A stretch of 32,679 nucleotides of DNA from Spirochaetota bacterium (GTDB lineage Bacteria > Spirochaetota > B62-G9 > DRHN01): positions 1 to 32,679 of the forward strand of contig DRHN01000134.1 in assembly GCA_011049595.1 (NCBI GenBank), given 5' to 3'. Positions within the stretch are counted from its first letter, which is position 1, and each line of letters starts with the position of its first letter. The notes under the pieces are model-generated. The model was not told the origin of the DNA, searched no databases, and worked only from the letters and a program-made list of their open reading frames with translations. Made by a program: the position numbers and the translations under genes. Of this stretch, positions 1,635 to 32,679 are shown piece by piece.

Positions 1635-1711
1635 TAATTAGTTTTTGATAACAACGCCGGGAGACCCGGTAAACTTCGGGGAACCCGACGATGTCGAGCC
1701 TGCCCGACTGG
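1635..1711 (+). repeat. Intergenic repeat copy A
   Basis: TAATTAGTTTTTGATAACAACGCCGGGAGACCCGGTAAACTTCGGGGAACCCGAC...; shares CCGGGAGACCCGG-(N)-AACTTCGGGGAACCCGAC with copy B. Confidence 0.8.
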
Positions 1712-1717
1712 AAAACA

Positions 1718-2959: not shown

Positions 2960-3025
2960 GGTGCCCGGCTTAGTCGGGTTCCCCGAAGTTGCCGGGTCTC
3001 CCGGAGTGGCACCATGAACTAATTA
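2960..3025 (-). repeat. Intergenic repeat copy B
   Basis: Reverse complement TAATTAGTTCATGGTGCCACTCCGGGAGACCCGGCAACTTCGGGGAACCCGAC; inverted relative to copy A; its last 25 bp match copy C at 23/25. Confidence 0.85.
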
Positions 3026-7371: not shown

Positions 7372-7520
7372 TAATTAGTTCTTGGTAAAGAATTCATGTT
7401 TTAAATAGTTAAAGTATCTTCAAGATTATTAGCGAATTGAATAATAAGAGTTAAATAGAACTAATTATTGATTTGGTGATCTAATCACCAAGAACTAATT
7501 AGTTCTTGGTAAAGAATTCA
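7372..7520. repeat. Intergenic repeat copy D: 25-bp direct repeats plus inverted terminal sequence
   Basis: TAATTAGTTCTTGGTAAAGAATTCA at 7372-7396 and 7496-7520; ACCAAGAACTAATTAGTTCTTGGT (7487-7510) is a perfect 24-bp palindrome; GGTGAT-CTA-ATCACC hairpin at 7475-7489. Confidence 0.85.
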
Positions 7521-10199: not shown

Positions 10200-10297
10200 C
10201 GAGAGTCCTGAAGCGCGACCGGTCTGTTTTTGTACCTAAATAACAATTCCCTTGTTTTTTTTGCACAAACTATAGTTTGCAGGAAACATATTTAAAA

Positions 10298-10336
10298 GTC
10301 GGGCAAGCCCGACAACTTCGGGTCCCCCGACGTTGC
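10298..10336. repeat. Intergenic palindromic repeat, copy E (divergent or partial)
   Basis: Perfect GTCGGGC-AA-GCCCGAC hairpin (10298-10313) followed by AACTTCGGGTCCCCCGACGTTG, resembling the internal module of copies A, B and C. Confidence 0.55.
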
Positions 10337-10482
10337 AAGAATGTGGCTTGGCTACATCAAAATTCTGAAAATGTTTAATTCTACGGCCCGGGCCGGCAGC
10401 ACTGTTGTAATTTAGATAAAAAACCCTTTGAGAAACGAGTATTTGGAGTTATAATGATAAGAAAGGATACATTATTATTCAC

Positions 10483-14688: not shown

Positions 14689-16801
14689 GAAAAAAGAAAA
14701 CAGCAAGGCTCTTGTTATTGTCGAATCACCGACAAAAGCAAAGACGATCAATAAATACCTCGGCAAAGGGTACAAGGTTAAATCTTCGATGGGGCATCTG
14801 ATAGATCTCCCCAAGTCAAGAATGGCGGTGGATGTTGATAACAGGTTCAAGCCGGATTATATCACTATAAGGGGTCGAGGCAAGTTATTAAGCGAGCTGA
14901 AGACGGAAGCCCGAAAAAGTAAATACGTGTTTCTGGCTGCCGACAGCGACAGGGAAGGAGAGGCGATCTCATATCATATAAAAAACGCGTTAGAAAAAAA
15001 AGACTCAAGTGTAAACATAAAAAGAATTGTTTTTAATGAAATAACAAAAAATGCCATTCAGGAAGCCATAAGGAACCCGAGAGATATCGATCTTACTCTT
15101 GTAAACGCACAGAAAGCGCGGCGTATTCTCGACAGGCTGGTAGGATACAACCTTTCACCTCTTCTGTGGGAAAAGATCAAAAAGGGGCTTTCCGCCGGCA
15201 GGGTCCAGTCTGTTGCCCTGAAGATCATCTGTGAAAGAGAGGAAGAGATAGAGCGTTTTGTGCCTAGAGAATACTGGACAATAGAAGCTGAATTTAAAAA
15301 GGGGAAAAAGGTTTTTACGGCAAAACTTGTTAAGTTCAACGATAAAAAGGCCTGGATCGGGTCTGAAAAGGAGGCTGATCGAATTCTGGGAAGCGTAGAA
15401 AAAGAGGATTTTATTGTTACACAGGCAGATGAAAAAAAGAGAAAACGAATGCCGTCGGCTCCTTTTACGACAAGTAAACTGCAGCAGGCTGCCAGCTCAA
15501 AATTGGGGTTTCCATCCAAAAAAACAATGATGATCGCGCAGCAGCTCTACGAGGGGATAAATATCGCCGAGGGCCCTGTCGGGCTCATAACATATATGAG
15601 AACGGATTCGGTGAGAGTATCGGACGCGGTCCGTGAAGAAGCCGATAAATTTATCAGGGAGAACTATTCGGACAAATATATCCCGAAAAAACCGAATCAA
15701 TTCAAAAACAAAAAAGGATCCCAGGACGCGCATGAGGCTGTGAGGCCTACTTCTGTTTACAGGACTCCCGAGGCAATGAAGCCCAGCCTGAGCAGGGATC
15801 AGTTCAAATTGTACAGGCTGATATGGGAGCAGTTTTTGACATCACAGATGGCTGAAGCACAGATGATGAACAAGACAGTGGATATTACTGCGGACGGCGG
15901 CCTTTTCAGGGCTTACGGCCAAAACGTCATGTTTGACGGCTTTTTAAAGGCCCTCAGGTCCAAAGACAAGGTTGAGCAAAAGCTGCTTCCCGACCTTTCT
16001 GTCGGCGACAGGCTGGTCCCTGAAAAATTGGAGAAGGAAGTCCATTGCACCGAACCTCCGCCCAGGTTCTCCGATGCCTCTATCGTTAAGTTTCTTGAAG
16101 AGTCGGGTATAGGCAGGCCCAGTACGTACGCGCCGATTATAACGACCCTGATCAGAAGATACTACATCGAGAGGGATAATAAGCAGTTCGTACCTACCTT
16201 TTTAGGGAAATTAACAAACAAACTGTTGACTCAGCATTTTTCCGATTTGATCGATGTTGAGTTCACTTCAAGCATGGAGGCAAAGCTCGATAAAATTGCC
16301 GAGGGGAAGCTCAATTGGGAAGAGCTTTTGAATGATTTTTATTTTCCCTTTATAAAAACGGTTGAAACCGCAAGAGAAAAATTGGAAAGTTACAAAGGCA
16401 TCACTGACGAAGAAACAGATTATGATTGTGAAAAGTGCGGAAGAAAAATGGTTAAAAGGCTGGGAAAATACGGCTATTTTCTGGCCTGTCCCGGGTTCCC
16501 GGACTGCAGAAATGCCAAGTCTCTTCCTCTGGGAAAGTGCCCGAGGGCATTATGCGGAGGGGATGTAGTAGAGAGAAAGACAAAACGAAAAAGAAAGTTC
16601 TACGGCTGCAGTAACTATCCTGAATGTGAATTTATGACATGGAACAAACCCTCTGATAAAGAATGCCCGAAATGCGGCAGTATTACCATAGAAAAATCAG
16701 TTGAAGGGGGAAAATATATTGTCTGCCTAAATGAAGAGTGCGGGCATAAAACACCTGTTGAAAAAGATATAGAAAAGAATGAACCTGTTGGCGTTCAATA
16801 A
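14678..16801 (+). CDS. topA: DNA topoisomerase I (start placed at the ATG at 14678)
   Basis: KALVIVESPTKAKTINKYLG, AADSDREGEAISYHI, ITYMRTDSVRVS, three C-terminal Cys4 zinc-ribbon motifs. Confidence 0.97.
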   Translation: MRDKKKENSKALVIVESPTKAKTINKYLGKGYKVKSSMGHLIDLPKSRMAVDVDNRFKPDYITIRGRGKLLSELKTEARKSKYVFLAADSDREGEAISYHIKNALEKKDSSVNIKRIVFNEITKNAIQEAIRNPRDIDLTLVNAQKARRILDRLVGYNLSPLLWEKIKKGLSAGRVQSVALKIICEREEEIERFVPREYWTIEAEFKKGKKVFTAKLVKFNDKKAWIGSEKEADRILGSVEKEDFIVTQADEKKRKRMPSAPFTTSKLQQAASSKLGFPSKKTMMIAQQLYEGINIAEGPVGLITYMRTDSVRVSDAVREEADKFIRENYSDKYIPKKPNQFKNKKGSQDAHEAVRPTSVYRTPEAMKPSLSRDQFKLYRLIWEQFLTSQMAEAQMMNKTVDITADGGLFRAYGQNVMFDGFLKALRSKDKVEQKLLPDLSVGDRLVPEKLEKEVHCTEPPPRFSDASIVKFLEESGIGRPSTYAPIITTLIRRYYIERDNKQFVPTFLGKLTNKLLTQHFSDLIDVEFTSSMEAKLDKIAEGKLNWEELLNDFYFPFIKTVETAREKLESYKGITDEETDYDCEKCGRKMVKRLGKYGYFLACPGFPDCRNAKSLPLGKCPRALCGGDVVERKTKRKRKFYGCSNYPECEFMTWNKPSDKECPKCGSITIEKSVEGGKYIVCLNEECGHKTPVEKDIEKNEPVGVQ

Positions 16802-17726
16802 GGTCGATCAGATGAGATTTGAACACTGCGTCAAGGATATTGAAAACACCGGTTTCAGAAAAGCCCTGGAGCATTTTTATAAATATCTCCAGGTACTTAA
16901 CCGGTCGGAAAATACTATCCGCTGGTATCTGGCGGACAATGTCCTGTTCTTGAAATATGTTGAAGAGGAGCCAGGTGAAAAAAAATTAGCTGATTTAGGG
17001 AAAAATGACCTGAGGGATTTTCTGGCCGACCAGTTATCGCGGAAAATTTCAAGGAGATCTCTGGCGAGAAGGGTTTCAAGTATTAAAAACTTTTTCAAAT
17101 TCCTTATAAAACAGGGCTGTCTGGAAAGCAGCAGTATCATACATATTGACAGCCCAAGAGGTGAAAAGAAATTGCCGAAAGTGGCCGCAAAAGAGGACCT
17201 CCTCGATATACTCAAACACCATGTTCCTGAATCCGCGCTTGATAGAAGGAATACGGCAATTGTTGCATTTCTTTACGGTACCGGTGCCCGTGTCAGCGAG
17301 ATGATCGGGCTGGATCTGAGAGACATCGATTTCAGAACGGGCCTTGTGTCATTGAAAGGCAAGGGGGATAAAACAAGGCTTGTACCTGCGGGCCGCTTTG
17401 TGCTTGACAGGATAAAAGGCTGGCTTGATGTACGGCAGGCATCCTCAGAAGCGGTATTTACATCGCTTTCGGGAAAAAGGCTGACAGCACGCCATATCAG
17501 AAATATTCTTGATGCCGCTATAAAAAAAGTGTCATTGAATATGAGGCTCTCGCCCCACACTATCAGGCATTCGTTTGCGACACATCTGATGGATAAAGGG
17601 GTTGATGTAAGAGTTGTCCAGGAGCTTTTGGGTCATGTGAGTTTATCGACTACACAGATATACACGCATGTATCCATGGAAAGATTGAAGGCAATGTACA
17701 ACAGGTATCATCCGCATGCGAAATAG
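16779..17726 (+). CDS. Tyrosine recombinase XerC/XerD
   Basis: LYGTGARVSEMIGLDLRDIDF, LSPHTIRHSFATHLMDKGVDVRVVQELLGHVSLSTTQIYTHVS; R...HxxR...H/Y catalytic set present. Confidence 0.93.
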   Translation: MNLLAFNKVDQMRFEHCVKDIENTGFRKALEHFYKYLQVLNRSENTIRWYLADNVLFLKYVEEEPGEKKLADLGKNDLRDFLADQLSRKISRRSLARRVSSIKNFFKFLIKQGCLESSSIIHIDSPRGEKKLPKVAAKEDLLDILKHHVPESALDRRNTAIVAFLYGTGARVSEMIGLDLRDIDFRTGLVSLKGKGDKTRLVPAGRFVLDRIKGWLDVRQASSEAVFTSLSGKRLTARHIRNILDAAIKKVSLNMRLSPHTIRHSFATHLMDKGVDVRVVQELLGHVSLSTTQIYTHVSMERLKAMYNRYHPHAK

Positions 17727-17730
17727 GACC

Positions 17731-17804
17731 TAAATAGTTCCTGGTGACAACTTCGGCTACGACTAAAGTCTTCGCAAGTCCGGCGTGGCACCAGGAACTA
17801 ATTA
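17731..17804. repeat. Intergenic repeat copy C, 74-bp element with 16-bp terminal inverted repeats
   Basis: TAAATAGTTCCTGGTG at 17731-17746 versus CACCAGGAACTAATTA at 17789-17804 (15/16 inverted match), five bases after the xer stop codon. Confidence 0.85.
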
Positions 17805-17839
17805 TCGAGAATGCGGCTTGTCCGCGTTGAGGAGGATTT

Positions 17840-18397
17840 ATGGTTAAATCAACAACAATACTGGCTGTCCTGGCTAAGGAGGGCGTGGCAATGGGGGGAG
17901 ACGGTCAGGTAACGATAGGGCAAACAGTCATGAAGGGGAATGCCCGGAAAGTTCGGCGAATGTTTGACGGGAAGGTGCTGGCCGGTTTCGCGGGCGCGAC
18001 TGCTGACTCGTTTGCGCTGTTTGAAAAATTCGAGGGCAAACTGAATGAGTACAGCGGTGACCTCGCGAGAGCGGCGGTGGAGCTGGCAAAAGAGTGGAGG
18101 CTCGACAAGGTCCTGAGAAGGCTCGAAGCGCTCATGATCGTCTCAGACCTGGAGAATATGTTTTTAATTTCAGGCGCGGGAGATGTCATTAGGCCTGAAG
18201 ATGACGGCATACTCGCAATCGGGTCGGGCGGTGCATACGCTACAGCCGCGGCGAAAGCCTTTTTTAAATCCGGCGCTAAAATGTCCTTAAATGAGATTGT
18301 AACTGAATCGCTGAAAATTGCGGCTTCTATATGTATTTATACAAATGAGAATATTATTGTCGAGGAGATAACATGCGAAAACCGGAAGAAGAACTGA
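17840..18397 (+). CDS. hslV: ATP-dependent protease subunit HslV
   Basis: [62 protein letters not shown]. Confidence 0.96.
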
Positions 18398-19770
18398 CTC
18401 CAGTACAGATCGTCAAGGAGCTGGATACATATATCATAGGCCAGGAAAAAGCAAAAAAATCGGTTGCGATCGCTTTGCGTAACCGATACAGGAGAAAAAA
18501 ACTGCCGGAAGATTTAAGAGACGAGGTGGCGCCGAAAAATATTGTTATGATCGGACCCACGGGTGTTGGAAAAACCGAGATTGCCAGAAGATTGTCCAAT
18601 ATCAGCGGTGCGCCTTTTATCAAGGTCGAAGCAACCAAATACACCGAGATTGGATATGTGGGCAGGGATGTGGAGAGCATGATAAGGGACCTCACAAACA
18701 TTGCGGTAAACGATGTAAAAAAGGAACTTAGTGAAGAAGTGGAAGCGCTCGCGAAAGAAAGGGCTGAGGGAGATCTTCTTGACATCCTGCTCCCTCCTAT
18801 ATCATTTCCCCGTAATAAAAGCGCTGCCGCTGCACATGAAAGTCAGGATAAGGGTGTCGGTACCGCCGGGGCCAGTTCTGAAGAGAGAGGTACAAGGACC
18901 AGGGAACGATTCAGGGAGAAACTGAAAAACGGGGAGCTCGAGGACAAATTAGTTGAGATCGAGGTGAAACAGCCAAAAACCCAGGTCCTTGGTATGTTTG
19001 CCGGCACAGGCCTTGAAGACATGGACTCTAACCTTTCAAACATGTTCAGTAATATTTTTCCTGAAAAGAAGAAGAGAAAAAAGGTATCAATAAAAGAGGC
19101 AAGAAAGATACTGGAAGAGGAGGAAAAGGACAAGCTCATCGACATGGACAAGGTGGTCAAAATTGCTACCGAGAGAGTCGAACAGTCGGGGATCGTATTT
19201 CTCGACGAAATAGATAAGGTGGCAGGTAAGGGGAACAGCCATGGCCCTGATGTTTCAAGGGAAGGAGTGCAGAGAGACATCCTGCCCATTGTGGAAGGGT
19301 CTACAGTGACTACCAAGTACGGTGCGGTGAGGACCCACCATATTCTTTTTATAGCAGCCGGGGCTTTTCACATGAGCAAGCCGTCGGACCTGATACCCGA
19401 ACTTCAGGGGAGGTTCCCTATACGGGTGGAATTGAAAAGCCTGACAACAGAGGACCTTGAAAAAATACTTACACAGCCGAAAAACGCCCTGGTCAAGCAG
19501 TACTGCGCCCTGCTCGCGACCGAAGGAGTCACACTCGACTTTAAACCTGACGCGATAAAGGAGATCGCCAAGATCGCTACTTTTGTCAATTCGCAAACGG
19601 AAAACATAGGCGCCCGAAGGCTGTACACAATTATGGAGCTTCTCCTCGAGGATGTTTCATTTTCCGCGCCCGAACTAAGCGGCCAGACCATACCGGTAAC
19701 GGTCGATTATGTGCGCACGAGACTCAAAGAAATCCTGGAAAACAAGGATCTGTCAAGGTACATTCTTTAA
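18373..19770 (+). CDS. hslU: HslU ATPase subunit of HslUV
   Basis: [79 protein letters not shown]. Confidence 0.97.
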
Positions 19771-19822
19771 GTACGAGATCAAAATTTTGTGAGATATGGT
19801 GAACAACGGCCTGTTAAGGGTT

Positions 19823-19851
19823 TTGTTATTTTACCGAGAATGTAATATAGA
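19823..19851 (+). promoter_or_regulatory. Candidate sigma70-type promoter upstream of flgB
   Basis: TTGTTA - 17 nt - TATAGA about 42 bp before the flgB ATG. Confidence 0.4.
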
Positions 19852-19893
19852 TAATGCTTGAATCGGGTTTATACCGGAAAAGGGGTTGGATAT

Positions 19894-20310
19894 ATGTTTT
19901 TGGATTCCGGGTTTATGAAGACAATAGATATACTTCAGCGGACGATGTCAACCTCTGTTCTGCGTCAGGAGGTAATTGCGGACAACGTTGCCAATGCCGA
20001 CACACCGCATTTTAAGAGAAGAGAAGTTGCCTTTGAAAGCGAACTGAACCGGGCCCTCAAGTCATATGACCCCGAACCCTTCCCGGCAGCTCTCACAAAC
20101 CGAATGCATATACCTTTTTACAGACCTAAAAATTATAGAGAGGTAAAACCGTTTGTCCACCTGGAGTACGCGACATCATACAGAAATGACGGCAATAATG
20201 TCGATATCGAAAAAGAAATGGTGGACGCCAGGGAGAATGCACTCAGGTATATGGCGATGGCCCAGATGACAAACGGTAAACTCAGGCTGCTGTCTATAGT
20301 GCTCAGGTAA
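19894..20310 (+). CDS. flgB: Flagellar basal-body rod protein FlgB
   Basis: MKTIDILQRTMSTSVLRQEVIADNVANADTPHFKRREVAFESEL; start placed at the ATG at 19894. Confidence 0.95.
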   Translation: MFLDSGFMKTIDILQRTMSTSVLRQEVIADNVANADTPHFKRREVAFESELNRALKSYDPEPFPAALTNRMHIPFYRPKNYREVKPFVHLEYATSYRNDGNNVDIEKEMVDARENALRYMAMAQMTNGKLRLLSIVLR

Positions 20311-20320
20311 GGAGTTTTAG

Positions 20321-20779
20321 ATGGGTATTTTCACTTCAATAAATATTGCTTCCACCGGTCTCACGGCCCAGAGACTCAGGATGGATGTGATTTCAAATAA
20401 TATCGCTAATGCCAACACGACCCGTACGACGGACGGTGAGGCATTCAGGAGAAAGAGAGTGATCCTGAGACCACGAAATGATCAGCCGGAATTCAGGACA
20501 AGATTTCTTCCTCAGTCACTCTGGCACGGTATGGGAGAAGGTGTCAGGGCGATCAAGATCGAAGAGGATAGATCACCCGCCCGGCTGGTGTACGACCCTA
20601 CACATCCGGACGCGGTAAAGAGCGGCCAGCTGAAGGGTTATGTTAAATATCCGAATGTAAATGTGGTAACTGAAATGGTGGACATGATTTCTGCCAGCAG
20701 GGCATATGAAGCGAACGTTACCGTCATTCAGAACTCGGGCCAGATGTTTATGAAAGGATTGGAAATCGGGTCCAGATAA
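20321..20779 (+). CDS. flgC: Flagellar basal-body rod protein FlgC
   Basis: SINIASTGLTAQRLRMDVISNNIANANTTRT; VNVVTEMVDMISASRAYEANVTVIQNSGQMF. Confidence 0.96.
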   Translation: MGIFTSINIASTGLTAQRLRMDVISNNIANANTTRTTDGEAFRRKRVILRPRNDQPEFRTRFLPQSLWHGMGEGVRAIKIEEDRSPARLVYDPTHPDAVKSGQLKGYVKYPNVNVVTEMVDMISASRAYEANVTVIQNSGQMFMKGLEIGSR

Positions 20780-20820
20780 CCCGGATTTCACGAACATAAT
20801 ATATTTTTACGGAGGAAGCG

Positions 20821-21156
20821 ATGTTGAGTTTTACTGGAGCGGAAGGTGACCTGGTTTCATTAAATGCTACAAATAAAGCACATTTCGGTTTTTCGGGCGG
20901 GAAACTTAAAGCAGGCAGTAAAAGTGACGACTTTGCCACTGGTTTTGCGAATGCCTTAAAGGAAGCTTTTTATAATGTCAATGATCTTCAGAGAGAGTCC
21001 GAGGAGCTCACCAGAGCCCTTGCTGTAAGACCCGACACTGTTGAAATACACGATGTTACGATAGCTGCCGAGAAAGCGAGGATAGCGCTTCTCTTCACAA
21101 AATCTATCGTCGACAAAATGACTCAAGCCTACAAGGAGCTCATTAACATGAGATAA
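20821..21156 (+). CDS. fliE: Flagellar hook-basal body protein FliE
   Basis: C-terminal DTVEIHDVTIAAEKARIALLFTKSIVDKMTQAYKELINMR; position between flgC and fliF. Confidence 0.93.
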   Translation: MLSFTGAEGDLVSLNATNKAHFGFSGGKLKAGSKSDDFATGFANALKEAFYNVNDLQRESEELTRALAVRPDTVEIHDVTIAAEKARIALLFTKSIVDKMTQAYKELINMR

Positions 21157-21199
21157 CCGCGCAGGCATTTATTGAGTTTTAGTTTTTTGGGAGGGGACC

Positions 21200-22903
21200 A
21201 TGGATGCGTTTTTAAAAAGAATACTCGAATATGCAAAAAATTTATTATCGAAATTATCTCAAACTCAGAAACTGATACTTATAGGTGTTGGTGCTCTCGT
21301 AATTGTAGGTTTCTTTTTTCTCATCTCATTTTCATCAAAACAAACTGAGGCCCTTCTTTTTCAATCTCCTCTTGAGCAGTTTGACTTTGTAAGGATCACA
21401 AACAAACTTACGGAATGGAACGCGGATTACAATTCCCGGGACGGCAAGTATATCGTTGTGCCGGATGAAAACACTGGAGCCTATCTGAGGATGAAAATTG
21501 GCCAGGCCGGGATCCTGCCTGCCGGTATCAAGGGATGGGAGTTGTTCGATACACAGGCCTGGACCACCACGGATTTTGAAAGGGATATCAATAAAAGAAG
21601 GGCGATAATCGGGGAGATCACACGGCACATAAAGCTTCTGGATGACGTGGAGGATGTGAGCATCCAGGTCACGATGCCTGAAGCCCAGCTTTACATAGAC
21701 AATGAAGAGCCTTTTACTGCATCCGTGATCATTACCCCGTCGCCATTTTCTGACATTATTACAAACAAGAAAAAGATCCAGGGGATAATAGATTTGATCG
21801 CCTTTGGAGTTGACAGGCTGAAACCTGAAAACGTTGTTGTCACAGATAACCATGGAAATATTCTTTCCGATTTTGATGCTGATGAGGATGTAAACTACCT
21901 GACAAGGGCAAAAGAAGAGTGGAAGATCAAGGAAAAACTCAGGTTAAAGACGCAAAGCGAGATCAGCAGCAAATTAAAAGGTGTTCTTGGAGAGGACAAG
22001 GTGGATGTGGCTGTGGAAATTGAATTGGATTTTGACCAGAAGAAAATAGAGAAAACCGAGTTTATTCCTATTGTAAAAAGACAGGACAACCCTGAAACCC
22101 CTTATGATGAAACCGAAGTCGTGCTCAATGTAATAAGGAGTGAAAAAGATACATCGGAATATTTTGAAGGTGTAGGATTTGTCCCTGAGGGTCCCCCCGG
22201 GGTTGAGCCGAATATTCCACCGGGCTACAAGGAAGCAATGGGGGAGGGCACCAAGTATGAAAAAACTGAAAATGTAAAAAACTATGAGGTCAGCCAGCAG
22301 ATTTCATATATTGAATCCTCACCATATAAATTGAAAAGGGTTTCAGTTGCGGTGTGGGTGGACGGGAGCTGGAAAAAAGTCTTCGATGAAAACGGGAAAC
22401 CTGTAATTACTCTGGAAGGGGTGATAGAGCGGGAATATTTACCAAGGACCCCCGAAGAGCTTAAAACTTTTGAAGAAGTAGTGAAAGCGGCGATCGGGTT
22501 CAATCCGGCCCGCAAGGACACTGTCGTGGTCAAAAATATTCAGTTTGACAGGACAGGGGAGTTCGCACTGGAAGACGCCTATTTAAAGAAGAGAGCCCAG
22601 ATGCGTAAAACCCTGCTTTCAGCGCTTATAGCATTGTTCTCAATATTTATTGTCACCCTTGCTTACAGGGCGGCAGCGCGGGAAGTATCGCGTAGAAAGA
22701 GGATCAAAGAGGAGGAGCTCGCTCGCCAGCAGCAGCTTATGAGAGAGGCGGCGCTGAAATCAGCGGAAGAGGAAGGCGCCGAAGTCGAGCTTGCACCCGA
22801 AGAGAAGGCAAGACTCGAAATGCAGGAAAACGTCATGAATTTGGCCAGGGACCACCCCGAAGAGGTAGCGAAACTCATCAGGACCTGGCTTGCCGAAGAG
22901 TGA
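21200..22903 (+). CDS. fliF: Flagellar MS-ring protein FliF
   Basis: 567 aa with N- and C-terminal TM segments; LDDVEDVSIQVTMPEAQLYIDNEEPFTASVIITPSP (secretin/YscJ-like ring domain). Confidence 0.95.
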   Translation: MDAFLKRILEYAKNLLSKLSQTQKLILIGVGALVIVGFFFLISFSSKQTEALLFQSPLEQFDFVRITNKLTEWNADYNSRDGKYIVVPDENTGAYLRMKIGQAGILPAGIKGWELFDTQAWTTTDFERDINKRRAIIGEITRHIKLLDDVEDVSIQVTMPEAQLYIDNEEPFTASVIITPSPFSDIITNKKKIQGIIDLIAFGVDRLKPENVVVTDNHGNILSDFDADEDVNYLTRAKEEWKIKEKLRLKTQSEISSKLKGVLGEDKVDVAVEIELDFDQKKIEKTEFIPIVKRQDNPETPYDETEVVLNVIRSEKDTSEYFEGVGFVPEGPPGVEPNIPPGYKEAMGEGTKYEKTENVKNYEVSQQISYIESSPYKLKRVSVAVWVDGSWKKVFDENGKPVITLEGVIEREYLPRTPEELKTFEEVVKAAIGFNPARKDTVVVKNIQFDRTGEFALEDAYLKKRAQMRKTLLSALIALFSIFIVTLAYRAAAREVSRRKRIKEEELARQQQLMREAALKSAEEEGAEVELAPEEKARLEMQENVMNLARDHPEEVAKLIRTWLAEE

Positions 22904-22968
22904 TAGATAAATTAAAGAATAACCGATTGTACAGCAAAAGGTTTTATTGAGAACAGGAGGATGAAAAG

Positions 22969-24021
22969 ATGGCAAAATCTGGCCCAAAACAAATACAGCC
23001 ACAGCAGGTGTCAGTCGGCAAACGGACACTCAACGGGAGACAGAAAGCCGCGGTCTTTCTGGTGACTCTGGGTTCGGAAGTATCCGCGGAAATATTCAAA
23101 CATCTCCGGGAGGATGAGATCGAGCAGCTCACCTTTGAGATCGCACGTTTAGAGACAGTGGATGCCGGGGAGAGGGACAAGGTTCTCATGGAGTTTCAGG
23201 AACTGATGATGGCCCAGGACTTCATAGCTTCCGGAGGGCTGGATTATGCGAGAGACCTGCTTGAAAGGGCGCTTGGTTCACAGAAAGCTATCGATATAAT
23301 AAACAGGCTGACATCCTCATTGCAGGTGAGGCCTTTTGATTTTATAAGAAGAACCGACCCGAGCCATCTTTTGAACTTTATACAGGGCGAGCATCCTCAG
23401 ACTATCGCTCTGATCCTTGCCTATCTCGAGCCCAACAAGTCTTCGATCATCCTGGGTGCTCTTCCCGATGAGATACAGGCCGATGTCGCAAAGAGGATCG
23501 CGACAATGGATAGGACCTCTCCGGATGTGCTCCGCGAAGTGGAAAGAGTGCTCGAGAAGAAATTATCCACACTGGCCAGTGAAGATTACACGGCTGCCGG
23601 AGGAATAGGAACGGTTGTTGATATTCTCAACCTTGTTGACAGAAGCACAGAGAAAACGATCATCGAATCACTGGAAGAGGACGATCCTGAACTGGCTGAA
23701 GAGATAAAGAAGAGGATGTTTATATTTGATGATATTGTGCTGCTTGACGACAGGGCGATCCAAAAAGTCCTCCGCGAGGTGGATACCCAGGACCTTTCAA
23801 AGGCGCTTAAGGGTGTGGATTCGGAAGTCCAGGATAAGATATATAGAAATATGAGTAAACGGGCGAGCAGTCTGCTGAAGGAAGACATGGAGTTTATGGG
23901 TCCTGTGAGGTTAAAGGATGTGGAAGAGGCGCAGCAGAAGATCGTTAGTATAATTAGAAAGCTGGAAGAGGCTGGTGAAATTGTGGTTGCCAGAGCAGGT
24001 GAGGACGAGCTTGTCGTATGA
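22969..24021 (+). CDS. fliG: Flagellar motor switch protein FliG
   Basis: QKAAVFLVTLGSEVSAEIFKHLREDEIEQLTFEIA, EHPQTIALILAYLEPNKSSIIL, FIFDDIVLLDDRAIQKVLREVD. Confidence 0.97.
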   Translation: MAKSGPKQIQPQQVSVGKRTLNGRQKAAVFLVTLGSEVSAEIFKHLREDEIEQLTFEIARLETVDAGERDKVLMEFQELMMAQDFIASGGLDYARDLLERALGSQKAIDIINRLTSSLQVRPFDFIRRTDPSHLLNFIQGEHPQTIALILAYLEPNKSSIILGALPDEIQADVAKRIATMDRTSPDVLREVERVLEKKLSTLASEDYTAAGGIGTVVDILNLVDRSTEKTIIESLEEDDPELAEEIKKRMFIFDDIVLLDDRAIQKVLREVDTQDLSKALKGVDSEVQDKIYRNMSKRASSLLKEDMEFMGPVRLKDVEEAQQKIVSIIRKLEEAGEIVVARAGEDELVV

Positions 24022-24089
24022 TCTGAACCTTGTGTTATTTCCAGGGCCGGCCGGGCCAGGTAAATACTATTTTTTGTTCGGAGGCGCTT

Positions 24090-25010
24090 TTGGCAAAGAA
24101 AATATTTAAATCCTATGAAATAAAAGTAGCCGAATCTAGGGTGTTGATCCCCCCTCCGCGTATATTTTCAGAGCAGAAAAAAGTGGAGGAAGTAATAGAG
24201 GAAGTGGAGGAGATAGGTGAGTTTCAACCGCTTGAAGAATCGGTTGAGGTTGAGACCCGTGACATCGAAACTGAAAGAGAAGAACTGCTTGAACTGGCTA
24301 AAAGAGAAACAGAGGAGGCCCTGCAGCAGGCCGGGATCATAAAAGAGGAAGCCGAACAAGAGGCTTTTAAAATATTGCAGAAGAAGAGTGTTGAAGTGAG
24401 GAAACTGAAGGAGGAAGCTCAGGAAGAAGCAGAGATAATACTAAAGGATGCGAAAAACGAAGCTGCCCGGCTGGAGAATGAGGCAAAGGCGAAGGCTGAC
24501 GCAATCGTCCAGGAAACAAGAGATAAAGCTGTCGAGGAAGGAAAGGACGAAGGGTATAAAAAGGGTGAAGAAGAGGTGAACAGGCTCATCGAAAGGGTCC
24601 ATGCTATTATAAACGCCGCCATCGACAATAAAAAGAACATTATAGAAAATACCGAAGAACAGCTTGTAGATCTGGTCCTTTTAATTGCCAGGAAAGTTGT
24701 AAAGGTAATTTCGGAGATGGAAAAAGACGTGGTTATTGAAAACGTCAGGGAAGCTTTGAAAAAGCTGGGAAAAGAAACAGAGATCGTTATAAAGGTCAAC
24801 ACCAAGGACCTGGATCTCACAACAAAAAATAAACGTAATTTTATATCCATGGTCGAGTCTCTTGAGCGGGTTAGAGTAGAAGAGGATGACCGGATAACCC
24901 GCGGTGGCTGTATCATAGAGACTTCTCTCGGAGATATCGACGCCAGGGTACAGACACAGCTTCAGGCAATTGAGGAAAAGATCAGGGAGCTTGTGCCGAT
25001 AAAAGGGTGA
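24090..25010 (+). CDS. fliH: Flagellar assembly protein FliH (TTG start)
   Basis: Coiled-coil middle and C-terminal FliH domain; ggaggcg RBS at 24079 precedes TTG at 24090 (LAKKIFKSYEI...). Confidence 0.9.
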   Translation: MAKKIFKSYEIKVAESRVLIPPPRIFSEQKKVEEVIEEVEEIGEFQPLEESVEVETRDIETEREELLELAKRETEEALQQAGIIKEEAEQEAFKILQKKSVEVRKLKEEAQEEAEIILKDAKNEAARLENEAKAKADAIVQETRDKAVEEGKDEGYKKGEEEVNRLIERVHAIINAAIDNKKNIIENTEEQLVDLVLLIARKVVKVISEMEKDVVIENVREALKKLGKETEIVIKVNTKDLDLTTKNKRNFISMVESLERVRVEEDDRITRGGCIIETSLGDIDARVQTQLQAIEEKIRELVPIKG

Positions 25011-25051
25011 TTTTATCGGACCGGGTATCAATATATTGCGCAGGAACATAA

Positions 25052-26377
25052 ATGGTTCAGAGAATTTTCGATAAATATGTGACCGCGGTTGAGCAGCTTG
25101 AAACCGTTGTCTATGAAGGAACGGTCAGTAAAGCGGTCGGTCTCCTAATTGAAAGCAAAGGGCCTCTTGCCGGCGTCGGGGAAATGTGCAGGGTAATTCT
25201 CCCTGAAAAAGGAAAAGAGGTCCCTGCCGAGGTCGTAGGGTTCAAGAACGGAATAACGCTTCTATTTCCCTATGATAACGACAGCGGCATTAAATCGGGC
25301 TTGAGGGTTGTTGCCACGGGAAAACCGCTTTCCGCGAAAGTCGGGGATGCGCTTTTAGGCAGAGTGATAAACACTCTCGGTAAACCGATTGACGATAAAG
25401 GTCCCGTTTATTATGATCAGGAATATCCAATATTCAATACCCCCCCCCACGTGCTTAAAAGAAGAAGGATCACGGAGGTACTCGCGACAGGTATCAAATC
25501 GATCGATGGGTGTCTTACGATAGGAAAGGGGCAGAGGCTGGGGATATTTTCAGGCAGCGGTGTAGGCAAAAGTACACTTCTTGGAATGATCGCGAAGCAT
25601 ACGGCAGCGGATGTAAATGTTATTGCACTTATAGGAGAGAGGGGCCGGGAGGTCCGGGATTTTATCGAAGGGGACCTGGGCGAAGAGGGGATGGAGCGGT
25701 CGGTTGTCGTGGTAGCTACCTCCGATCAGGCGCCTATATCCAGGATAAGGGGCGCATATCTGGCTATGGCTGTTGCCGAATATTTCAGGGACCAGGGAAA
25801 AGATGTCCTTTTTATGATGGATTCCATTACTAGGTTCGCGCGTGCGCAGCGTGAAATAGGGCTCGCTGTCGGTGAACCTCCGGCGACAAAAGGATACACA
25901 CCGAGTGTTTTTTCTATATTACCGAAACTGCTCGAGAGAAGCGGTATGGCGCAGTCAGGGTCAATCACAGGGATATTCACAGTCCTTGTAGAGGGTGACG
26001 ATATAAATGAACCTGTGTCCGATGCAGTTAGAGGGGTTCTTGACGGTCATATAGTACTTTCCAGAGACCTTGCTCAGAAGAACCAGTACCCGGCTGTGGA
26101 TGTGCTGGCCAGCATCAGCAGGCTGATGCCCTACATCACTTCCGAGAAGCATAAAAGAGCAATAGGCAAGCTCAAACAGGTCCTGGCCTATTATTACGAT
26201 ACAGAAGATCTGATCCAGATCGGGGCGTATGTAAAAGGTTCTGATAAGAGAATTGACTGGGCAGTCGAAAAAATTGACGACGTGACTCGATTTTTAATGC
26301 AGGGTGTGGATGAGGATTTCAGCTTTCAGGATATTCAAAGCGGGCTTTTTGAGATATTTGATGGTGAAGGGGAATAA
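25052..26377 (+). CDS. fliI: Flagellum-specific ATPase FliI
   Basis: IFSGSGVGKSTLLGMIAKHTAADVNVIALIGERGREV, DVLFMMDSITRFARAQREIGLAVGEPPATKGYTPSVF. Confidence 0.97.
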   Translation: MVQRIFDKYVTAVEQLETVVYEGTVSKAVGLLIESKGPLAGVGEMCRVILPEKGKEVPAEVVGFKNGITLLFPYDNDSGIKSGLRVVATGKPLSAKVGDALLGRVINTLGKPIDDKGPVYYDQEYPIFNTPPHVLKRRRITEVLATGIKSIDGCLTIGKGQRLGIFSGSGVGKSTLLGMIAKHTAADVNVIALIGERGREVRDFIEGDLGEEGMERSVVVVATSDQAPISRIRGAYLAMAVAEYFRDQGKDVLFMMDSITRFARAQREIGLAVGEPPATKGYTPSVFSILPKLLERSGMAQSGSITGIFTVLVEGDDINEPVSDAVRGVLDGHIVLSRDLAQKNQYPAVDVLASISRLMPYITSEKHKRAIGKLKQVLAYYYDTEDLIQIGAYVKGSDKRIDWAVEKIDDVTRFLMQGVDEDFSFQDIQSGLFEIFDGEGE

Positions 26378-26380
26378 TGG

Positions 26381-26857
26381 TTGGAGAAGTTTGTATTCAG
26401 GCTTGAAAATGTGCTGAAACTGCGTAAAAGAATGGAAGAGCGCATTCAGCTGGAGTTCGCAAAGAAGAGGGCTGAGCTTTTAAAGGTCGACATTGAAGTC
26501 GATAGATCCAGGGACACTCTTTCAAATTTTGTCAACGAGAACCTGCGGATGGAAGGCACATTTTTAGCTTCAGAGATATTGGCTGTTGATAATTATATTC
26601 ACAGGGTCAGAGGAAGGATCCGGCAGTTGAAGGACCTTCGCATGGAAAAAGAGGATGAAGTAAACAGCGCGCTGGGGGTTCTCAAAGACGCAAGAAAATC
26701 AAGGAAAGTTATTGAGAACCTCAAGGAAAGGAAATACAGGAAGTATCTGGAGAAGCTGAACAGAGAGGAGAATGATGATATGGATGACATAACACAAAAT
26801 ATTGGTTTAAATATAGAGAAGCTGACCATAGATGATATTGTGTTGGAGGATATGTAA
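26381..26857 (+). CDS. fliJ: Flagellar FliJ/FlbA-like protein
   Basis: 158-aa coiled-coil, FVFRLENVLKLRKRMEERIQLEFAKKRAELL; position after fliI. Confidence 0.85.
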   Translation: MEKFVFRLENVLKLRKRMEERIQLEFAKKRAELLKVDIEVDRSRDTLSNFVNENLRMEGTFLASEILAVDNYIHRVRGRIRQLKDLRMEKEDEVNSALGVLKDARKSRKVIENLKERKYRKYLEKLNREENDDMDDITQNIGLNIEKLTIDDIVLEDM

Positions 26858-27510
26858 TGTCAGAAAGCAGCGTATTTCAGAATATTGGAAACGTACTTTC
26901 GAGAATAGATGAAATTAAAAGAAAATATGGTGTAAATAAAACAGTTGCATACCCGGGTTTTGATTACTGGCTGGACAGGGAAATGCAGATTGAGCATGAA
27001 GAGGATGCCGTTGAAAACCTGCAGCTTGAAAAAAGTGTTGAAGAAACAGCCCCGGCGCGGGAAATACCGCTTATAAAAAATATGAACACCGGCAGCGGCA
27101 CGAAAGAGGATACAGCACAGAATACTGACATGTTCGATGATATAATCAGAAAGGCTTCCCAAAGATTCATGGTCCCGGAGCAGTTGATCAGTGCCGTAAT
27201 AAAACAGGAATCCGACTTCGATCAGACCGCTGTTTCGCCGAAAGGCGCCATGGGGCTTATGCAGTTAATGCCTGCGACCGCGACTTTTTTAGGGGTCGAA
27301 GATCCGTTCAATGCTGAAGAAAACATTTTTGGAGGAACACAATATCTAAGAGAGCTCATAAATCTGTATAACGGAAACCTGAACAAAGCGCTGGCTGCGT
27401 ATAATGCCGGTCCTCAGAGAGTAGGAGAGGATATTCCCGATATTCCTGAAACAAAGGACTTCATACAATCAGTGCTTGATTATTACAATGCGTTTTCTAA
27501 ATACGATTAA
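26857..27510 (+). CDS. Lytic transglycosylase (SLT domain), flagellar-operon encoded
   Basis: VPEQLISAVIKQESDFDQTAVSPKGAMGLMQLMPATATFLGVEDPFNAEENIFGGTQYLRELINLYNGNLNKALAAYNAGPQRV. Confidence 0.93.
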   Translation: MSESSVFQNIGNVLSRIDEIKRKYGVNKTVAYPGFDYWLDREMQIEHEEDAVENLQLEKSVEETAPAREIPLIKNMNTGSGTKEDTAQNTDMFDDIIRKASQRFMVPEQLISAVIKQESDFDQTAVSPKGAMGLMQLMPATATFLGVEDPFNAEENIFGGTQYLRELINLYNGNLNKALAAYNAGPQRVGEDIPDIPETKDFIQSVLDYYNAFSKYD

Positions 27511-27522
27511 CCGGAGAGAAAA

Positions 27523-28143
27523 ATGAGCACCGCATCAACGATTACAAATTTGCTGAAAATAATTTTTCTGCTGATACTTATAGTCGTTATCATGCTCGGA
27601 GGGGTTTACTGGTTTGATCACCTCGGGCTTGTTGACTATAACAAATTTATCGGGGCTTTCGAGAAGTACATGCCAGTGTTTATGAAAAAGGGAGTGGAAG
27701 TAACGGATGAGCCGGCCCTTCTTGAGGAGGAATTTTTAAATAAAAGAGAAGAAATGCTGCTTGCAAAAAATCGGGAACTTGAACTTGAAAAGCAGGAGAT
27801 AGAAAAAAAGAAGCTCGAATTACAGGAGATCGAAGCAAAGCTGACAGAGGAGACTTCCAGGCTTGAAGAGGAGAAAAAAGTATTAAGCGAAAAACTTCGT
27901 GAATACGATAATTATAATGAAAATATTAAAAGGCAGGCAGGGTATTTTACTAATATGCCCCCAGCTGCTGCTGTTGAAAGGATCGCGAAACTCGAAGATC
28001 TGCTTGCCATCGATATTCTGCGTCAGATTGACGCGGCCGCTGAGGAGGAAGGGCGGATATCGATGGTCCCGTTTTTTCTAAGTTTAATGGACCCTGAGAG
28101 GGCCGCGACATTACAGCGGAAGATGACAAAGGTCGGTGAATAG
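27523..28143 (+). CDS. flbB: FlbB/MotE-like periplasmic flagellar collar protein
   Basis: Single N-terminal TM, long coiled coil, C-terminal MotE-like YFTNMPPAAAVERIAKLEDLLAIDILRQID...FFLSLMDPERAATLQRKM; position matches flbB/ylxF. Confidence 0.82.
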   Translation: MSTASTITNLLKIIFLLILIVVIMLGGVYWFDHLGLVDYNKFIGAFEKYMPVFMKKGVEVTDEPALLEEEFLNKREEMLLAKNRELELEKQEIEKKKLELQEIEAKLTEETSRLEEEKKVLSEKLREYDNYNENIKRQAGYFTNMPPAAAVERIAKLEDLLAIDILRQIDAAAEEEGRISMVPFFLSLMDPERAATLQRKMTKVGE

Positions 28144-28148
28144 TACAG

Positions 28149-29441
28149 ATGATAAATACACCAGGTCAAATTAAGACAAAGGATGTTATGGCTCCCCGAA
28201 AAGGTGCCGACCGGACCGGACCGAAGGCGGAAGAAAGTAAGGATAGCACATTTTCTTCATTTTTTACACAATATCTTGAAGCCGGGGAAAAAAATCGGGA
28301 CAAGCTGAAGTCATCGAAGCAAAACCTGGAAAGTGCGGCGGTAGGAAAAGGAGTTAAAACCCGGAAAAATTTTTTAACAGTGAAAAAGCCTCCGGGCGGT
28401 AAACAGGGGCAGCGGGTAATCCGGCTGAAAAACCGCCAAATAGCATATCTTTCCGCCGGAATTTTATCCGGAACTCTAAAGGATAAAACATTACAAAACA
28501 GAAAAGAGGGCAGGGTTATTCAGCTGATGGCCGAAAATCGGCCATCCAACGGCCAGCTTCGAAAAAGAATACTGTCCCTTCAAGGTAAAAAGCAGCATTC
28601 GCTGTCGGCTCTAAACAAAAAATCAGCAGGCCGTAACTCAACAATAGAAAGAACTGTTGTTCTTGCCAAGAAGTACATCGCAGGTAAAAAACGTACTTAT
28701 AATAAAGATGTATTGAAAGGGGAGTGGGCTGTAAAGGGCGGTGACGACGCGAAAAAAAGTTCAGCAATTACCGGAGGCGGAAAATCCGATAGGAAAATAA
28801 ACAGTGCAAATAAAACAACAGGACCGGGTTTAGTAAAAGACAGGAATAACGGTCCTTCATTTAATGGTGCCGATGATAAAAAGAATGCTGTTTCAAAAAC
28901 CACTGAATCTGATAACGTGCAGGGTAGAAAAACGGCCGTCGGTGAACTGTCAGATGCCGGTGTAAAGTATGATAATAATGTACCCAGGACAACAGTAAAA
29001 CTTGATTATCAAATTAATAGAAATGCCGATGAGATATTTAATGACATAGTAAAAAGGTTTTCACTCGTAGTTAAAAAGGGAGGGGGCGAGGCCAGGATAG
29101 TGCTTCAGCCCGAAGTCCTGGGGCAGTTGAAAATGAAAATGAGTCTCAATAATCACGAAGTAAATACCTTCATGGTTGTAGAGAATGAAACCGTAAAAGA
29201 TTTAATATTAGGGAAGCTGAATATACTGGAACAAAATCTTTTACAGCAGGGTTTCAGTCTGGGCTCGTTCCAGGTTGATGTAAAGGATAAAAACACCGAG
29301 CTCGGCACTTGGGGGGAAAAAGGTAAAAAGGGGCATCGGATCGATGACCTTGATGACCTTGATGAAGAAGATGGAATCCCGGAAATCGAAAAGAGTCCCG
29401 GCGTGCCCTGGATCTCGACAATAGTGGATCTCACAGCATAA
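28149..29441 (+). CDS. fliK: FliK-like flagellar hook-length control protein
   Basis: Low-complexity basic N-terminal region plus C-terminal Flg_hook domain (EARIVLQPEVLGQLKMKMSLNNHEVNTFMVVENETVKDLILGKLNILEQNLLQQGFSLGSFQVDV). Confidence 0.85.
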   Translation: MINTPGQIKTKDVMAPRKGADRTGPKAEESKDSTFSSFFTQYLEAGEKNRDKLKSSKQNLESAAVGKGVKTRKNFLTVKKPPGGKQGQRVIRLKNRQIAYLSAGILSGTLKDKTLQNRKEGRVIQLMAENRPSNGQLRKRILSLQGKKQHSLSALNKKSAGRNSTIERTVVLAKKYIAGKKRTYNKDVLKGEWAVKGGDDAKKSSAITGGGKSDRKINSANKTTGPGLVKDRNNGPSFNGADDKKNAVSKTTESDNVQGRKTAVGELSDAGVKYDNNVPRTTVKLDYQINRNADEIFNDIVKRFSLVVKKGGGEARIVLQPEVLGQLKMKMSLNNHEVNTFMVVENETVKDLILGKLNILEQNLLQQGFSLGSFQVDVKDKNTELGTWGEKGKKGHRIDDLDDLDEEDGIPEIEKSPGVPWISTIVDLTA

Positions 29442-29453
29442 CAGGAGAAGGAA

Positions 29454-29927
29454 ATGGATATGTCTTTTGCCATGAATACAAATGATTTGTTTAAAACCCG
29501 GCTACAAGTGGAAAGTTTCAATAAATCCATTGAAAAAGCGGGAAGAAATGTGACAAACACTCTCGGTAAGGATGATTTTTTAAAACTACTGGTGGTTCAG
29601 CTCGAAAACCAGGACCCCACAAAACCTCTTGATGATAATGAATTTATTTCCCAGATGGCGCAGTTTTCTTCTCTCGAGCAGATGACCTCGATTAATAAAA
29701 CGCTGTCCAGTCTCATTTCCAATTATAAAGTAACTCTCTCCTATTCCCTTCTGGGAAAGCAGGTTGAGGTCCTGGACAGGGCAACCGGGGAGCAAAACAG
29801 CGGTGTAGTGTCCGAGATAACCTTCAGCGGCGGAAGATTCGAAGATGAAGTTCCTAAAATATCTTTTAACGGTTTAAGTTACAGTGTGGATGACGTAGTA
29901 AAAGTTTCGATGAGTCGGTTAGATTAA
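29454..29927 (+). CDS. flgD: Flagellar hook-assembly scaffold FlgD
   Basis: LGKDDFLKLLVVQLENQDPTKPLDDNEFISQMAQFSSLEQMTSINKTL. Confidence 0.95.
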   Translation: MDMSFAMNTNDLFKTRLQVESFNKSIEKAGRNVTNTLGKDDFLKLLVVQLENQDPTKPLDDNEFISQMAQFSSLEQMTSINKTLSSLISNYKVTLSYSLLGKQVEVLDRATGEQNSGVVSEITFSGGRFEDEVPKISFNGLSYSVDDVVKVSMSRLD

Positions 29928-29993
29928 TTAATATATATGATTCCGAAGATCCGGGAGGGGGCAACGCGTTAAAATGACAAGGAGTGTGTTCAA

Positions 29994-31379
29994 ATGATGC
30001 GATCTCTTTATTCTGGTGTTTCGGGTTTGAGAAACCACCAGATCAGAATGGATGTCCTGGGCAGCAATATTGCGAATGTAAACACCTATGGATTTAAAAA
30101 GAGCAGAGTTTCGTTCCAGGACATTTTGTCCCAGACGATTTCCGGGGCGGCAGCCCCCACAGCTGAAAAGGGTGGCGTTAATCCAAAACAGGTCGGGCTC
30201 GGTATGAATATTTCGAGTATTGACACAATTTTTACCCAGGGCAGCCTGCAGACCACAGGACTGAACCTCGACCTCGCGATACAGGGGGAAGGTTTTTTCG
30301 TGTTGAGCAGGGGAGAGGAGCTGTACTACACACGGGCCGGAAGTTTCGGGCTTGATAAAAATGGTACCCTTGTAAACCCGGCCAACGGGTTGAGGGTCCA
30401 GGGCTGGCAGGCTGTAAAAGCGGGCACAGACTACATAATAAACACCTCCGGTGAAATGGAGGATATAATAATACCGATCGGCGGAAAGGACCCCGCGAAA
30501 GCGACGGAGATAATAAGATACAAGAGCAATCTCAATTCGGAAACTCCGCTTCTCCCTGAGGGCCGTGCGCCGACACCCGAGGAGGCGTTGAACTCGACCA
30601 TGGTAACGAATATAGATGCCTATGACAGTGTCGGTAATGTCCACAGAGTCACGGTCGAGTTTACAAGGGTTCAGGGCGAAGTCAACACATGGCTTGCCTC
30701 GGCATTTGTAGAAGGAGCGGATGAAACATCCCTCACTTTTGATGTCGAAGGGCTGAACGGGAATGATTCGAACACCATCATCATGAGATTTAACAATCAG
30801 GGAGCCCCCGTTTCAATTGAAGACAGTCCATTAACAGCCGGGGCACCGGTCGATATGATAACCGATGGGCAGCTGGTCGCCACTCTAAATGTAGATTTTC
30901 CAGAGCTCGGGATAAACCAGGCCATAAATATCAATTTTGGTACCGCGGATGAATATACCGGGATAACACAATTTGCAGCCCCTTCCTCCGCAAAGGCGTA
31001 CGAGCAGGATGGATATGGAATGGGGTACCTGCAATCTTTTACAGTTGACAGCTCCGGGATAATCACGGGAGAATACACAAACGGTAAAAAGGCACCCATA
31101 GCACAGGTCGCGCTCGGGACTTTTGTCAATAATCAGGGACTCGTCGCGGGGGGGGACAATACCTTTTCACAGACGAACAACTCGGGGATAGCCAATATAG
31201 GAGCAGCCGAAACAGGTGGAAGGGGGAAGATCACGGCAGGGACACTCGAGATGAGTAACGTCGATCTTGCTGAACAGTTTACAGATATGATCGTTACACA
31301 AAGGGGGTTTCAGGCAAACTCCAGGAGCATAACCACTTCTGATCAGATGCTCCAGGAGCTATTGGCATTGAAGAGATAG
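29994..31379 (+). CDS. flgE: Flagellar hook protein FlgE
   Basis: MMRSLYSGVSGLRNHQIRMDVLGSNIANVNTYGFKKSRVSFQDILSQT; C-terminal GTLEMSNVDLAEQFTDMIVTQRGFQANSRSITTSDQMLQELLALKR. Confidence 0.97.
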   Translation: MMRSLYSGVSGLRNHQIRMDVLGSNIANVNTYGFKKSRVSFQDILSQTISGAAAPTAEKGGVNPKQVGLGMNISSIDTIFTQGSLQTTGLNLDLAIQGEGFFVLSRGEELYYTRAGSFGLDKNGTLVNPANGLRVQGWQAVKAGTDYIINTSGEMEDIIIPIGGKDPAKATEIIRYKSNLNSETPLLPEGRAPTPEEALNSTMVTNIDAYDSVGNVHRVTVEFTRVQGEVNTWLASAFVEGADETSLTFDVEGLNGNDSNTIIMRFNNQGAPVSIEDSPLTAGAPVDMITDGQLVATLNVDFPELGINQAININFGTADEYTGITQFAAPSSAKAYEQDGYGMGYLQSFTVDSSGIITGEYTNGKKAPIAQVALGTFVNNQGLVAGGDNTFSQTNNSGIANIGAAETGGRGKITAGTLEMSNVDLAEQFTDMIVTQRGFQANSRSITTSDQMLQELLALKR

Positions 31380-31441
31380 AACTGAAAATATAAAGAAGTA
31401 ATAACGACTGAATTCGGATCCGGTTTTTAAGCTTGAGCAGC

Positions 31442-31461
31442 AGCCCCTTTTTTTAGGGGCT
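31442..31461 (+). promoter_or_regulatory. Intercistronic stem-loop between flgE and flbD
   Basis: AGCCCC-tttttttA-GGGGCT perfect 6-bp stem with a T-rich loop. Confidence 0.45.
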
Positions 31462-31492
31462 ACAGCTGATTTTATAGGGACGGGGTTTTATT

Positions 31493-31690
31493 TTGATCAA
31501 GGTAACCCGGCTGAACAATACGGCATTCTGGCTGAACCCTCATATGATCGAACTGATAGACCAAAAGCCGGATACGACTATAACCTTGAATTCGGGGAAG
31601 TTACTGATAGTTAAAGAATCTCCTGAGGAAATATTTGATGAGATTGTGGTTTACCGGCAGAAGCTATGGCCGTTTGGGAACGAAAAATAG
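31493..31690 (+). CDS. flbD: Flagellar protein FlbD (TTG start)
   Basis: IKVTRLNNTAFWLNPHMIELIDQKPDTTITLNSGKLLIVKESPEEI. Confidence 0.93.
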   Translation: MIKVTRLNNTAFWLNPHMIELIDQKPDTTITLNSGKLLIVKESPEEIFDEIVVYRQKLWPFGNEK

Positions 31691-31749
31691 GTATATCTTA
31701 TGCAAATACAATTTATTGAATTAAATAGATATCCAGGAGGCCTTTCAAT

Positions 31750-32544: not shown

Positions 32545-32587
32545 CAAAGCTGCAGACAAATACTATTGATATTAATGGTAATTTATA

Positions 32588-32679
32588 TTAAAATTTAATT
32601 AAACGTGGCAAAGCAGTCGACATACCGGGCCCGATGGCGCTTTTGTCTTCAATATTTGAAAGCATAAGGATCAGCCCGA
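32588..32679 (-). pseudogene. Inverted partial near-copy of motA running off the right edge
   Basis: 32609-32679 is the reverse complement of 32243-32313 at 69/71 identity; minus-strand reading ...GLILMLSNIEDKSAIGPGMSTAL then PRLIKF-stop. Could be an assembly chimera. Confidence 0.7.

What the first reader, a model, noticed from the sequence alone, without database searches (positions are those of the whole stretch)
17731..17804. Family of palindromic intergenic repeats with shared TAATTAGTTCYTGGTG ends
Copy C (74 bp) has near-perfect 16-bp terminal inverted repeats. Its right end CCGGCGTGGCACCAGGAACTAATTA (17780-17804) matches copy B CCGGAGTGGCACCATGAACTAATTA (3001-3025) at 23/25. Related ends occur at 1635 and in the 7372-7520 gap, and a related internal module at 10298-10336. 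All copies sit in gene-free gaps or at gene 3' ends. Probably a MITE/REP-like family not tied to a known name here.
Basis: seen in the sequence. Interest (0 to 1): 0.62.

Follow-up and report, generated by a model that had tools for sequence, protein, structure and literature searches.

The report
Modular hairpin elements inserted after TAATT
This spirochaete-related genome carries well over a hundred copies of a small hairpin-forming mobile DNA element, built from interchangeable hairpin blocks, that lands just after the sequence TAATT (often exactly at a gene's stop codon); it works like known bacterial "REP/MITE" hopping hairpins but belongs to no described family that I could match, and the enzyme that moves it is not known.

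Summary
The 16-bp end CACCARGAACTAATTA occurs 243 times (≤2 mismatches) in the 4.44-Mb host genome, against 2 for the reversed control. Related ends occur in other genera and families of the phylum: 133 versus 3 in one single-contig relative. I extracted 81 paired-end copies (77 could be oriented, 46-263 bp). They are mosaics of short hairpin modules between conserved inverted ends.

New facts:
- Polarity: AATTA borders one end in 68/77 oriented copies; the other end's flank varies (p≈6e-15).
- No target-site duplication above chance in 81 copies.
- Stop codons: the TAA of the TAATT border is a gene's stop codon far more often than at other TAATT sites (odds ratio 11, p≈3e-7). For 8 of 13 such genes a related gene in another genome stops at the same codon, so TAATT is probably the host target.
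- Gain: the same-genus relative and five others lack copy C between xerC and hslV.

Best reading: non-autonomous REP/MITE-like elements inserting 3' of TAAT(T), probably through single-stranded DNA. No Y1/RAYT transposase or reverse transcriptase was found in the host, and no autonomous copy was seen, so the mobiliser is inferred. New variant of a known kind.

The parts
17736..17799 (+). Copy C: 64-bp element between AGTTC and GAACT (74 bp with TAAAT / AATTA borders), between xerC-like and hslV
   Evidence: absent from the orthologous gap in six relatives
17800..17804 (-). AATTA = TAATT target border on the constant side of copy C
   Evidence: constant side in 68/77 oriented copies
17731..17735 (+). 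TAAAT, variable (AT-rich) border of copy C
3001..3025 (+). Copy B: constant-side end; TAATTAG gives the TAG stop of the 91-codon ORF 3019-3294 (-)
7377..7496 (-). AT-rich 120-bp full copy, followed by a partial abutting end (7497-7512)
1639..1717 (-). Copy A: one constant-type end plus GC hairpin modules, other end lost; far limit approximate
10296..10341 (+). Internal hairpin modules (GTCGGGCAAGCCCGAC, CTTCGGGTCCCCCGACG) without ends; a fragment
16779..17726 (+). xerC-like tyrosine recombinase upstream of copy C (host gene, not part of the element)
   Evidence: Pfam Phage_integrase 1.8e-43
17840..18397 (+). hslV downstream of copy C (host gene)
   Evidence: Pfam Proteasome 1.4e-23

Best explanation
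A family of non-autonomous, REP/MITE-like palindromic mobile elements. SHOWN: elements are bounded by inverted ends AGTTCYTGGTG...CACCARGAACT, built from interchangeable hairpin modules, lie between genes, have one constant side (TAATT directly 5' of AGTTC on that strand) and one variable AT-rich side, show no target-site duplication, and often sit so that the TAA of TAATT is a gene's stop codon. INFERRED: TAAT(T) is the host target, with insertion directly 3' of it. A transposase supplied in trans recognises the 11-16-bp ends, probably as a hairpin in single-stranded DNA (HUH/Y1-type cut-and-rejoin as in IS200/IS605 and REP systems). Module gain and loss come from hairpin insertion and deletion. 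Insertion at TAA stops is tolerated because the protein is unchanged.
For: Copy number and controls. Same ends with diverged interiors in other genera/families, as expected if an enzyme reads the ends. Polarity 57 vs 2, p about 6e-15. No TSD in 81 copies. TAATT-at-stop enrichment 12/78 vs 11/694 non-internal sites, p about 3e-7. Same-codon natural stop in a related gene for 8 of 13 tested TAA(-5) genes: ArgC, MinD-like, two ABC permeases, FeoA-like and others. Empty site for copy C. Strong single-strand folding.
Against: No Y1_Tnp (PF01797) in the 89%-complete host nor in element-bearing G002 and G055. Relatives with Y1/RAYT genes do not carry these ends beside them in the loci read, and G003 has five Y1 matches but a single end. 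No autonomous copy between facing ends in the stretches read. Outer-stem pairs mostly do not vary, so covariation neither supports nor refutes the hairpin. The variable side still prefers TAATT-like sequence. Some ORFs end in TAG at the border, which a pure TAA-target model does not predict.
Confidence: 0.55

Rival explanations
1. Ordinary MITE: internal-deletion derivative of a DDE-transposase insertion sequence (for example IS630-like with a TA target), moved in trans by it.
For: Terminal inverted repeats, 46-263 bp size range, intergenic placement, AT-rich target, related ends over several genera.
Against: No target-site duplication in 81 copies at any length or fixed offset tested; only one side is constant; no transposase gene seen between facing ends. 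A TA duplication inside a preferred TAATTA target would be hard to see.
Confidence: 0.27
2. A host-selected regulatory RNA or DNA structure (mRNA 3'-end stabiliser, attenuator or protein-binding site) whose dispersal is secondary.
For: Strong folding; copies at gene 3' ends and within the xerC-hslV gene pair.
Against: Absent at the orthologous xerC-hslV site in six relatives; all four flanking-gene orientations occur; no terminator or promoter match at copy C; no Rfam match there; little pair covariation; interiors not conserved between genera.
Confidence: 0.1
3. RNA-mediated (retro-)insertion with a fixed 3' end and 5' truncation.
For: Some one-ended copies keep the constant end.
Against: No reverse transcriptase PF00078 in the genome; in the less biased sample one-ended copies are roughly 13 constant-end vs 6 variable-end by my reading, several with a diverged partner; no duplication.
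Confidence: 0.04

Closest known systems
REP / GTAG- and CGTC-tagged palindromes (PMC3733652, PMC8266576)
   Same: High-copy extragenic palindromes with a short conserved tag at one foot; mostly downstream of or between genes; GTAG REP termini often supply a TAG stop to flanking ORFs; CGTC REPs also have no associated transposase and occur in Spirochaetes (PMC3733652).
   Different: REPs are 20-50 nt; these are mostly 46-263 bp and multi-module. Tag is TAATT, not GTAG/CGTC. No RAYT gene detected in the host; RAYT-like genes of relatives not flanked by these ends.
BOX elements of streptococci (PMC3049150)
   Same: About 100+ copies, modular composition with variable inner modules between conserved end modules, MITE-like, strongly folding.
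   Different: BOX is reported to have TIRs and cause TSDs; here no TSD was detected. Sequence similarity to BOX was not tested.
MITEs (RUP, NEMIS/Correia, ERIC, Nezha)
   Same: Short, inverted termini, intergenic, non-autonomous, AT-rich targets.
   Different: No TSD, one-sided TAATT border, no parent IS found.
IS200/IS605 family ends
   Same: Sequence-specific insertion 3' of a short target without TSD and hairpin recognition (general knowledge of the family, not tested here).
   Different: No Y1 transposase linked; whole elements are hairpins rather than having subterminal hairpins.

Membership tests
REP (GTAG/CGTC-tagged) | GTAG or CGTC tag at one foot of the palindrome | tested here: not met
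   Constant border is TAATT
REP (GTAG/CGTC-tagged) | 20-50 nt palindrome | tested here: not met
   Oriented copies 46-263 bp; a few 23-31-bp palindromes exist
REP (GTAG/CGTC-tagged) | One-sided conserved tag, polarity | tested here: met
   57 vs 2
REP (GTAG/CGTC-tagged) | RAYT gene in the genome flanked by the repeat | tested here: not met
   PF01797 absent in the 89%-complete host; RAYT-like loci of relatives without the ends
DDE-type MITE | Terminal inverted repeats | tested here: met
   AGTTCYTGGTG / CACCARGAACT
DDE-type MITE | Target-site duplication | tested here: not met
   81 copies, no excess over shuffled pairings; a TA duplication within TAATTA cannot be excluded
DDE-type MITE | Parent IS with matching ends | tested here: inconclusive
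   None among facing ends in the fetched stretches; genomes incomplete and not fully read; no genome-wide DDE family search was made
IS200/IS605-like insertion | Insertion 3' of a fixed short target, no duplication | tested here: inconclusive
   TAATT-side constancy and natural stop codons agree; no base-exact empty site from a close strain
IS200/IS605-like insertion | Y1 HUH transposase | tested here: not met
   PF01797 not found in host; host 89% complete
BOX | boxA/boxC ends with boxB modules | not tested
   No sequence comparison made; modular analogy only

The most novel reading that the evidence does not exclude
A phylum-level superfamily of single-stranded-DNA mobile elements that grow and diversify by taking hairpin modules into one another, target TAAT(T) including natural stop codons, and are moved in trans by an undescribed (non-RAYT) enzyme.
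Probability: 0.25. Interest if true: 0.75.

Novelty: new variant of a known kind. Interest (0 to 1): 0.5.

Why it matters
It extends REP/MITE biology to an uncultured lineage next to the named Spirochaetota, with a distinct tag (TAATT), larger modular bodies and no visible RAYT. This bears on the open question, raised for CGTC REPs, of which enzyme moves tagged palindromes. The stop-codon targeting offers a simple, testable reason why such repeats accumulate at gene 3' ends without harming the host.

Tried and rejected
Reverse transcription with 5' truncation: suggested by one-ended copies, weakened by a less biased sample and no PF00078. RAYT mobilisation: no PF01797 in the host; RAYT-like genes of relatives not flanked by the ends. 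Target-site duplication: none. Autonomous element between facing ends: none in fetched stretches; the one interval found holds an unrelated ORF. Presence elsewhere: two viral contigs patterns, plasmids, phages and one genome contigs 21-mer gave no match. Known RNA family: none at the copy. Terminator or promoter at copy C: none. Covariation of the outer stem: mostly invariant, uninformative. No structure prediction was run because there is no encoded protein to fold.

Full report
OBSERVATION. Copy C lies at window 17731-17804 with 15/16 matching ends, and its right end matches copy B at 23/25. The window is a contig of a 4.44-Mb, 521-contig, 89%-complete genome. Across it the 16-bp end CACCARGAACTAATTA occurs 243 times with up to 2 mismatches against 2 for the reversed pattern, and the exact core AGTTCYTGGTG 154 times against 8. 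That suggests roughly 100-150 elements (my estimate from the end counts).

ANATOMY. After fetching neighbourhoods I extracted 81 copies with paired ends. The 77 that could be oriented are 46-263 bp; a few shorter palindromes of 23-31 bp exist. Between the ends lie short hairpin modules in varying number and order: GTCGGGCAAGCCCGRC, CTCCGGGTCTCCCGGCG or CTCCGTGTTTTATACGGCG (same base, different apical sequence), CGTCGGGTTCCCCGAAG, and a long AT-rich body with TTGAGCCGTTTCACCGCGACTAAT and TTAGTTCTATTTAAC. Forms up to 110 bp average 55% G+C and 111-180-bp forms 33%, against 43% for the fetched host DNA. Short copies fold far better than shuffles (z about -5.5 to -7.2).

POLARITY AND TARGET. Oriented by interior sequence alone, one end is followed by AATTA in 68 of 77 copies, while the other end is preceded by exact TAATT in 13 of 77 (mostly one or two changes away); discordant copies split 57 to 2 (p about 6e-15). 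In contigs C2-C296, where the exact-core search was listed completely, the figures are 48 and 12 of 56. There is no direct repeat across the insertion above shuffled pairings for lengths 4-9 or fixed offsets.

STOP CODONS. Of 36 ORFs (at least 80 codons) running into an end, 15 stop at the TAA of TAATT and 10 at the TAG of TAATTAG (several of the latter are doubtful ORFs). Excluding sites inside genes, TAATT sites next to an element are gene stops in 12 of 78 cases versus 11 of 694 for other TAATT sites in the same DNA (odds ratio 11, p about 3e-7). The C-termini of 20 such genes were searched in six relatives and the aligned stop regions read. For 8 of the 13 TAA(-5) genes searched, at least one related gene stops at exactly the same codon: c323 (ArgC), c357 (MinD-like), c165 and c517 (ABC permeases; the c165 matches may include paralogues), c233, c272, c520 (FeoA-like; stop position within about one codon) and c73. 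The others differ by a few codons or could not be judged. Gene names are from my reading of the sequences. This fits TAA(TT) being host sequence retained as the target. It is indirect, because relatives are about 75% identical and the target bases themselves are not conserved in them.

EMPTY SITE. Window 15130-32679 is collinear with G001 contig C25 at about 70-76% identity, and the alignment breaks at 17728/17830, an insertion of about 101 bp in this genome only. G001 and five other relatives have a short xerC-hslV gap without the element. The inserted stretch is longer than the element (it includes AATTATCGAGAATGCGGCTTGTCCGCGTTG), so the exact breakpoints are uncertain.

DISTRIBUTION. HslV phylogeny places the window with its relatives beside the named Spirochaetota (100/86). 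In 247 genomes of the phylum the 16-bp end (up to 1 mismatch) is abundant in the host (165) and G004 (56), with 3-6 in G001, G002, G005, G009, G055 and G173; reversed-control hits are 0 in all of these except one in G009. G004, one contig, has 133 vs 3 at up to 2 mismatches. Relatives' elements share the ends but have diverged interiors, including ones with extra nested hairpins at one internal site. The 90-bp host consensus itself was found in none of the other genomes among 60 searched.

MOBILISER. No Y1_Tnp or reverse transcriptase was found in the host. Y1_Tnp matches exist in G003, G004, G005, G009 and G173 (and a weak fragment in G001) but not in G002 or G055; the loci read show none flanked by the ends. 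No transposase was seen between facing ends. MAG incompleteness leaves the question open.

COMPARISON. It works most like tagged REPs: one-sided tag, stop codons supplied or abutted (PMC3733652), cleavage guided by the tag beside a hairpin (PMC8266576). In modularity it resembles BOX (PMC3049150). It fails defining features of each that were tested, so I file it as a new variant of REP/MITE-like elements rather than a member.

Noticed in passing
L055, L149, L165, L166, L202 and C194:14096: A ~22-25-bp internal module (TATTGAGCCGTTTCACCGCGACTAA) is present or absent between GTTAxTAA and TCTTGAAG in otherwise alignable long copies, as if it were itself a tiny insertion with TAA on both sides.
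   Followed up: partly
G004 loci L285, L293, L246, L301, L247: Different perfect hairpins (GAATTGGTTATT..AATAACCAATTC, GCAGTTGGTG..CACCAACTGC, TTAGTTGTTA..TAACAACTAA) sit at the same internal site of the ~140-bp element.
   Followed up: partly
L289, L290, L291, L303 (G004): 29-bp palindromes AGTTTCTGGTG...CACCAGAAACT (and variants) lie next to 95-96-bp elements, in two cases separated by GCGTTCTTCGAACGTATTT.
   Followed up: no
L254, L255 (G055): Elements with the same ends carry a different cargo resembling GTCATTTCGACC...GAGAAATCTTT.
   Followed up: no
window 17805-17834: A second small hairpin (GCGGCTTGTCCGC) follows copy C within the DNA absent from G001.
   Followed up: no
L307, L308, L309, L312, L313: RAYT-like Y1_Tnp proteins (open frames of about 213-354 aa) in relatives, without these ends within the ~1.5 kb read on each side.
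   Followed up: partly
window 420-493: tRNA gene on the minus strand (Rfam RF00005).
   Followed up: no
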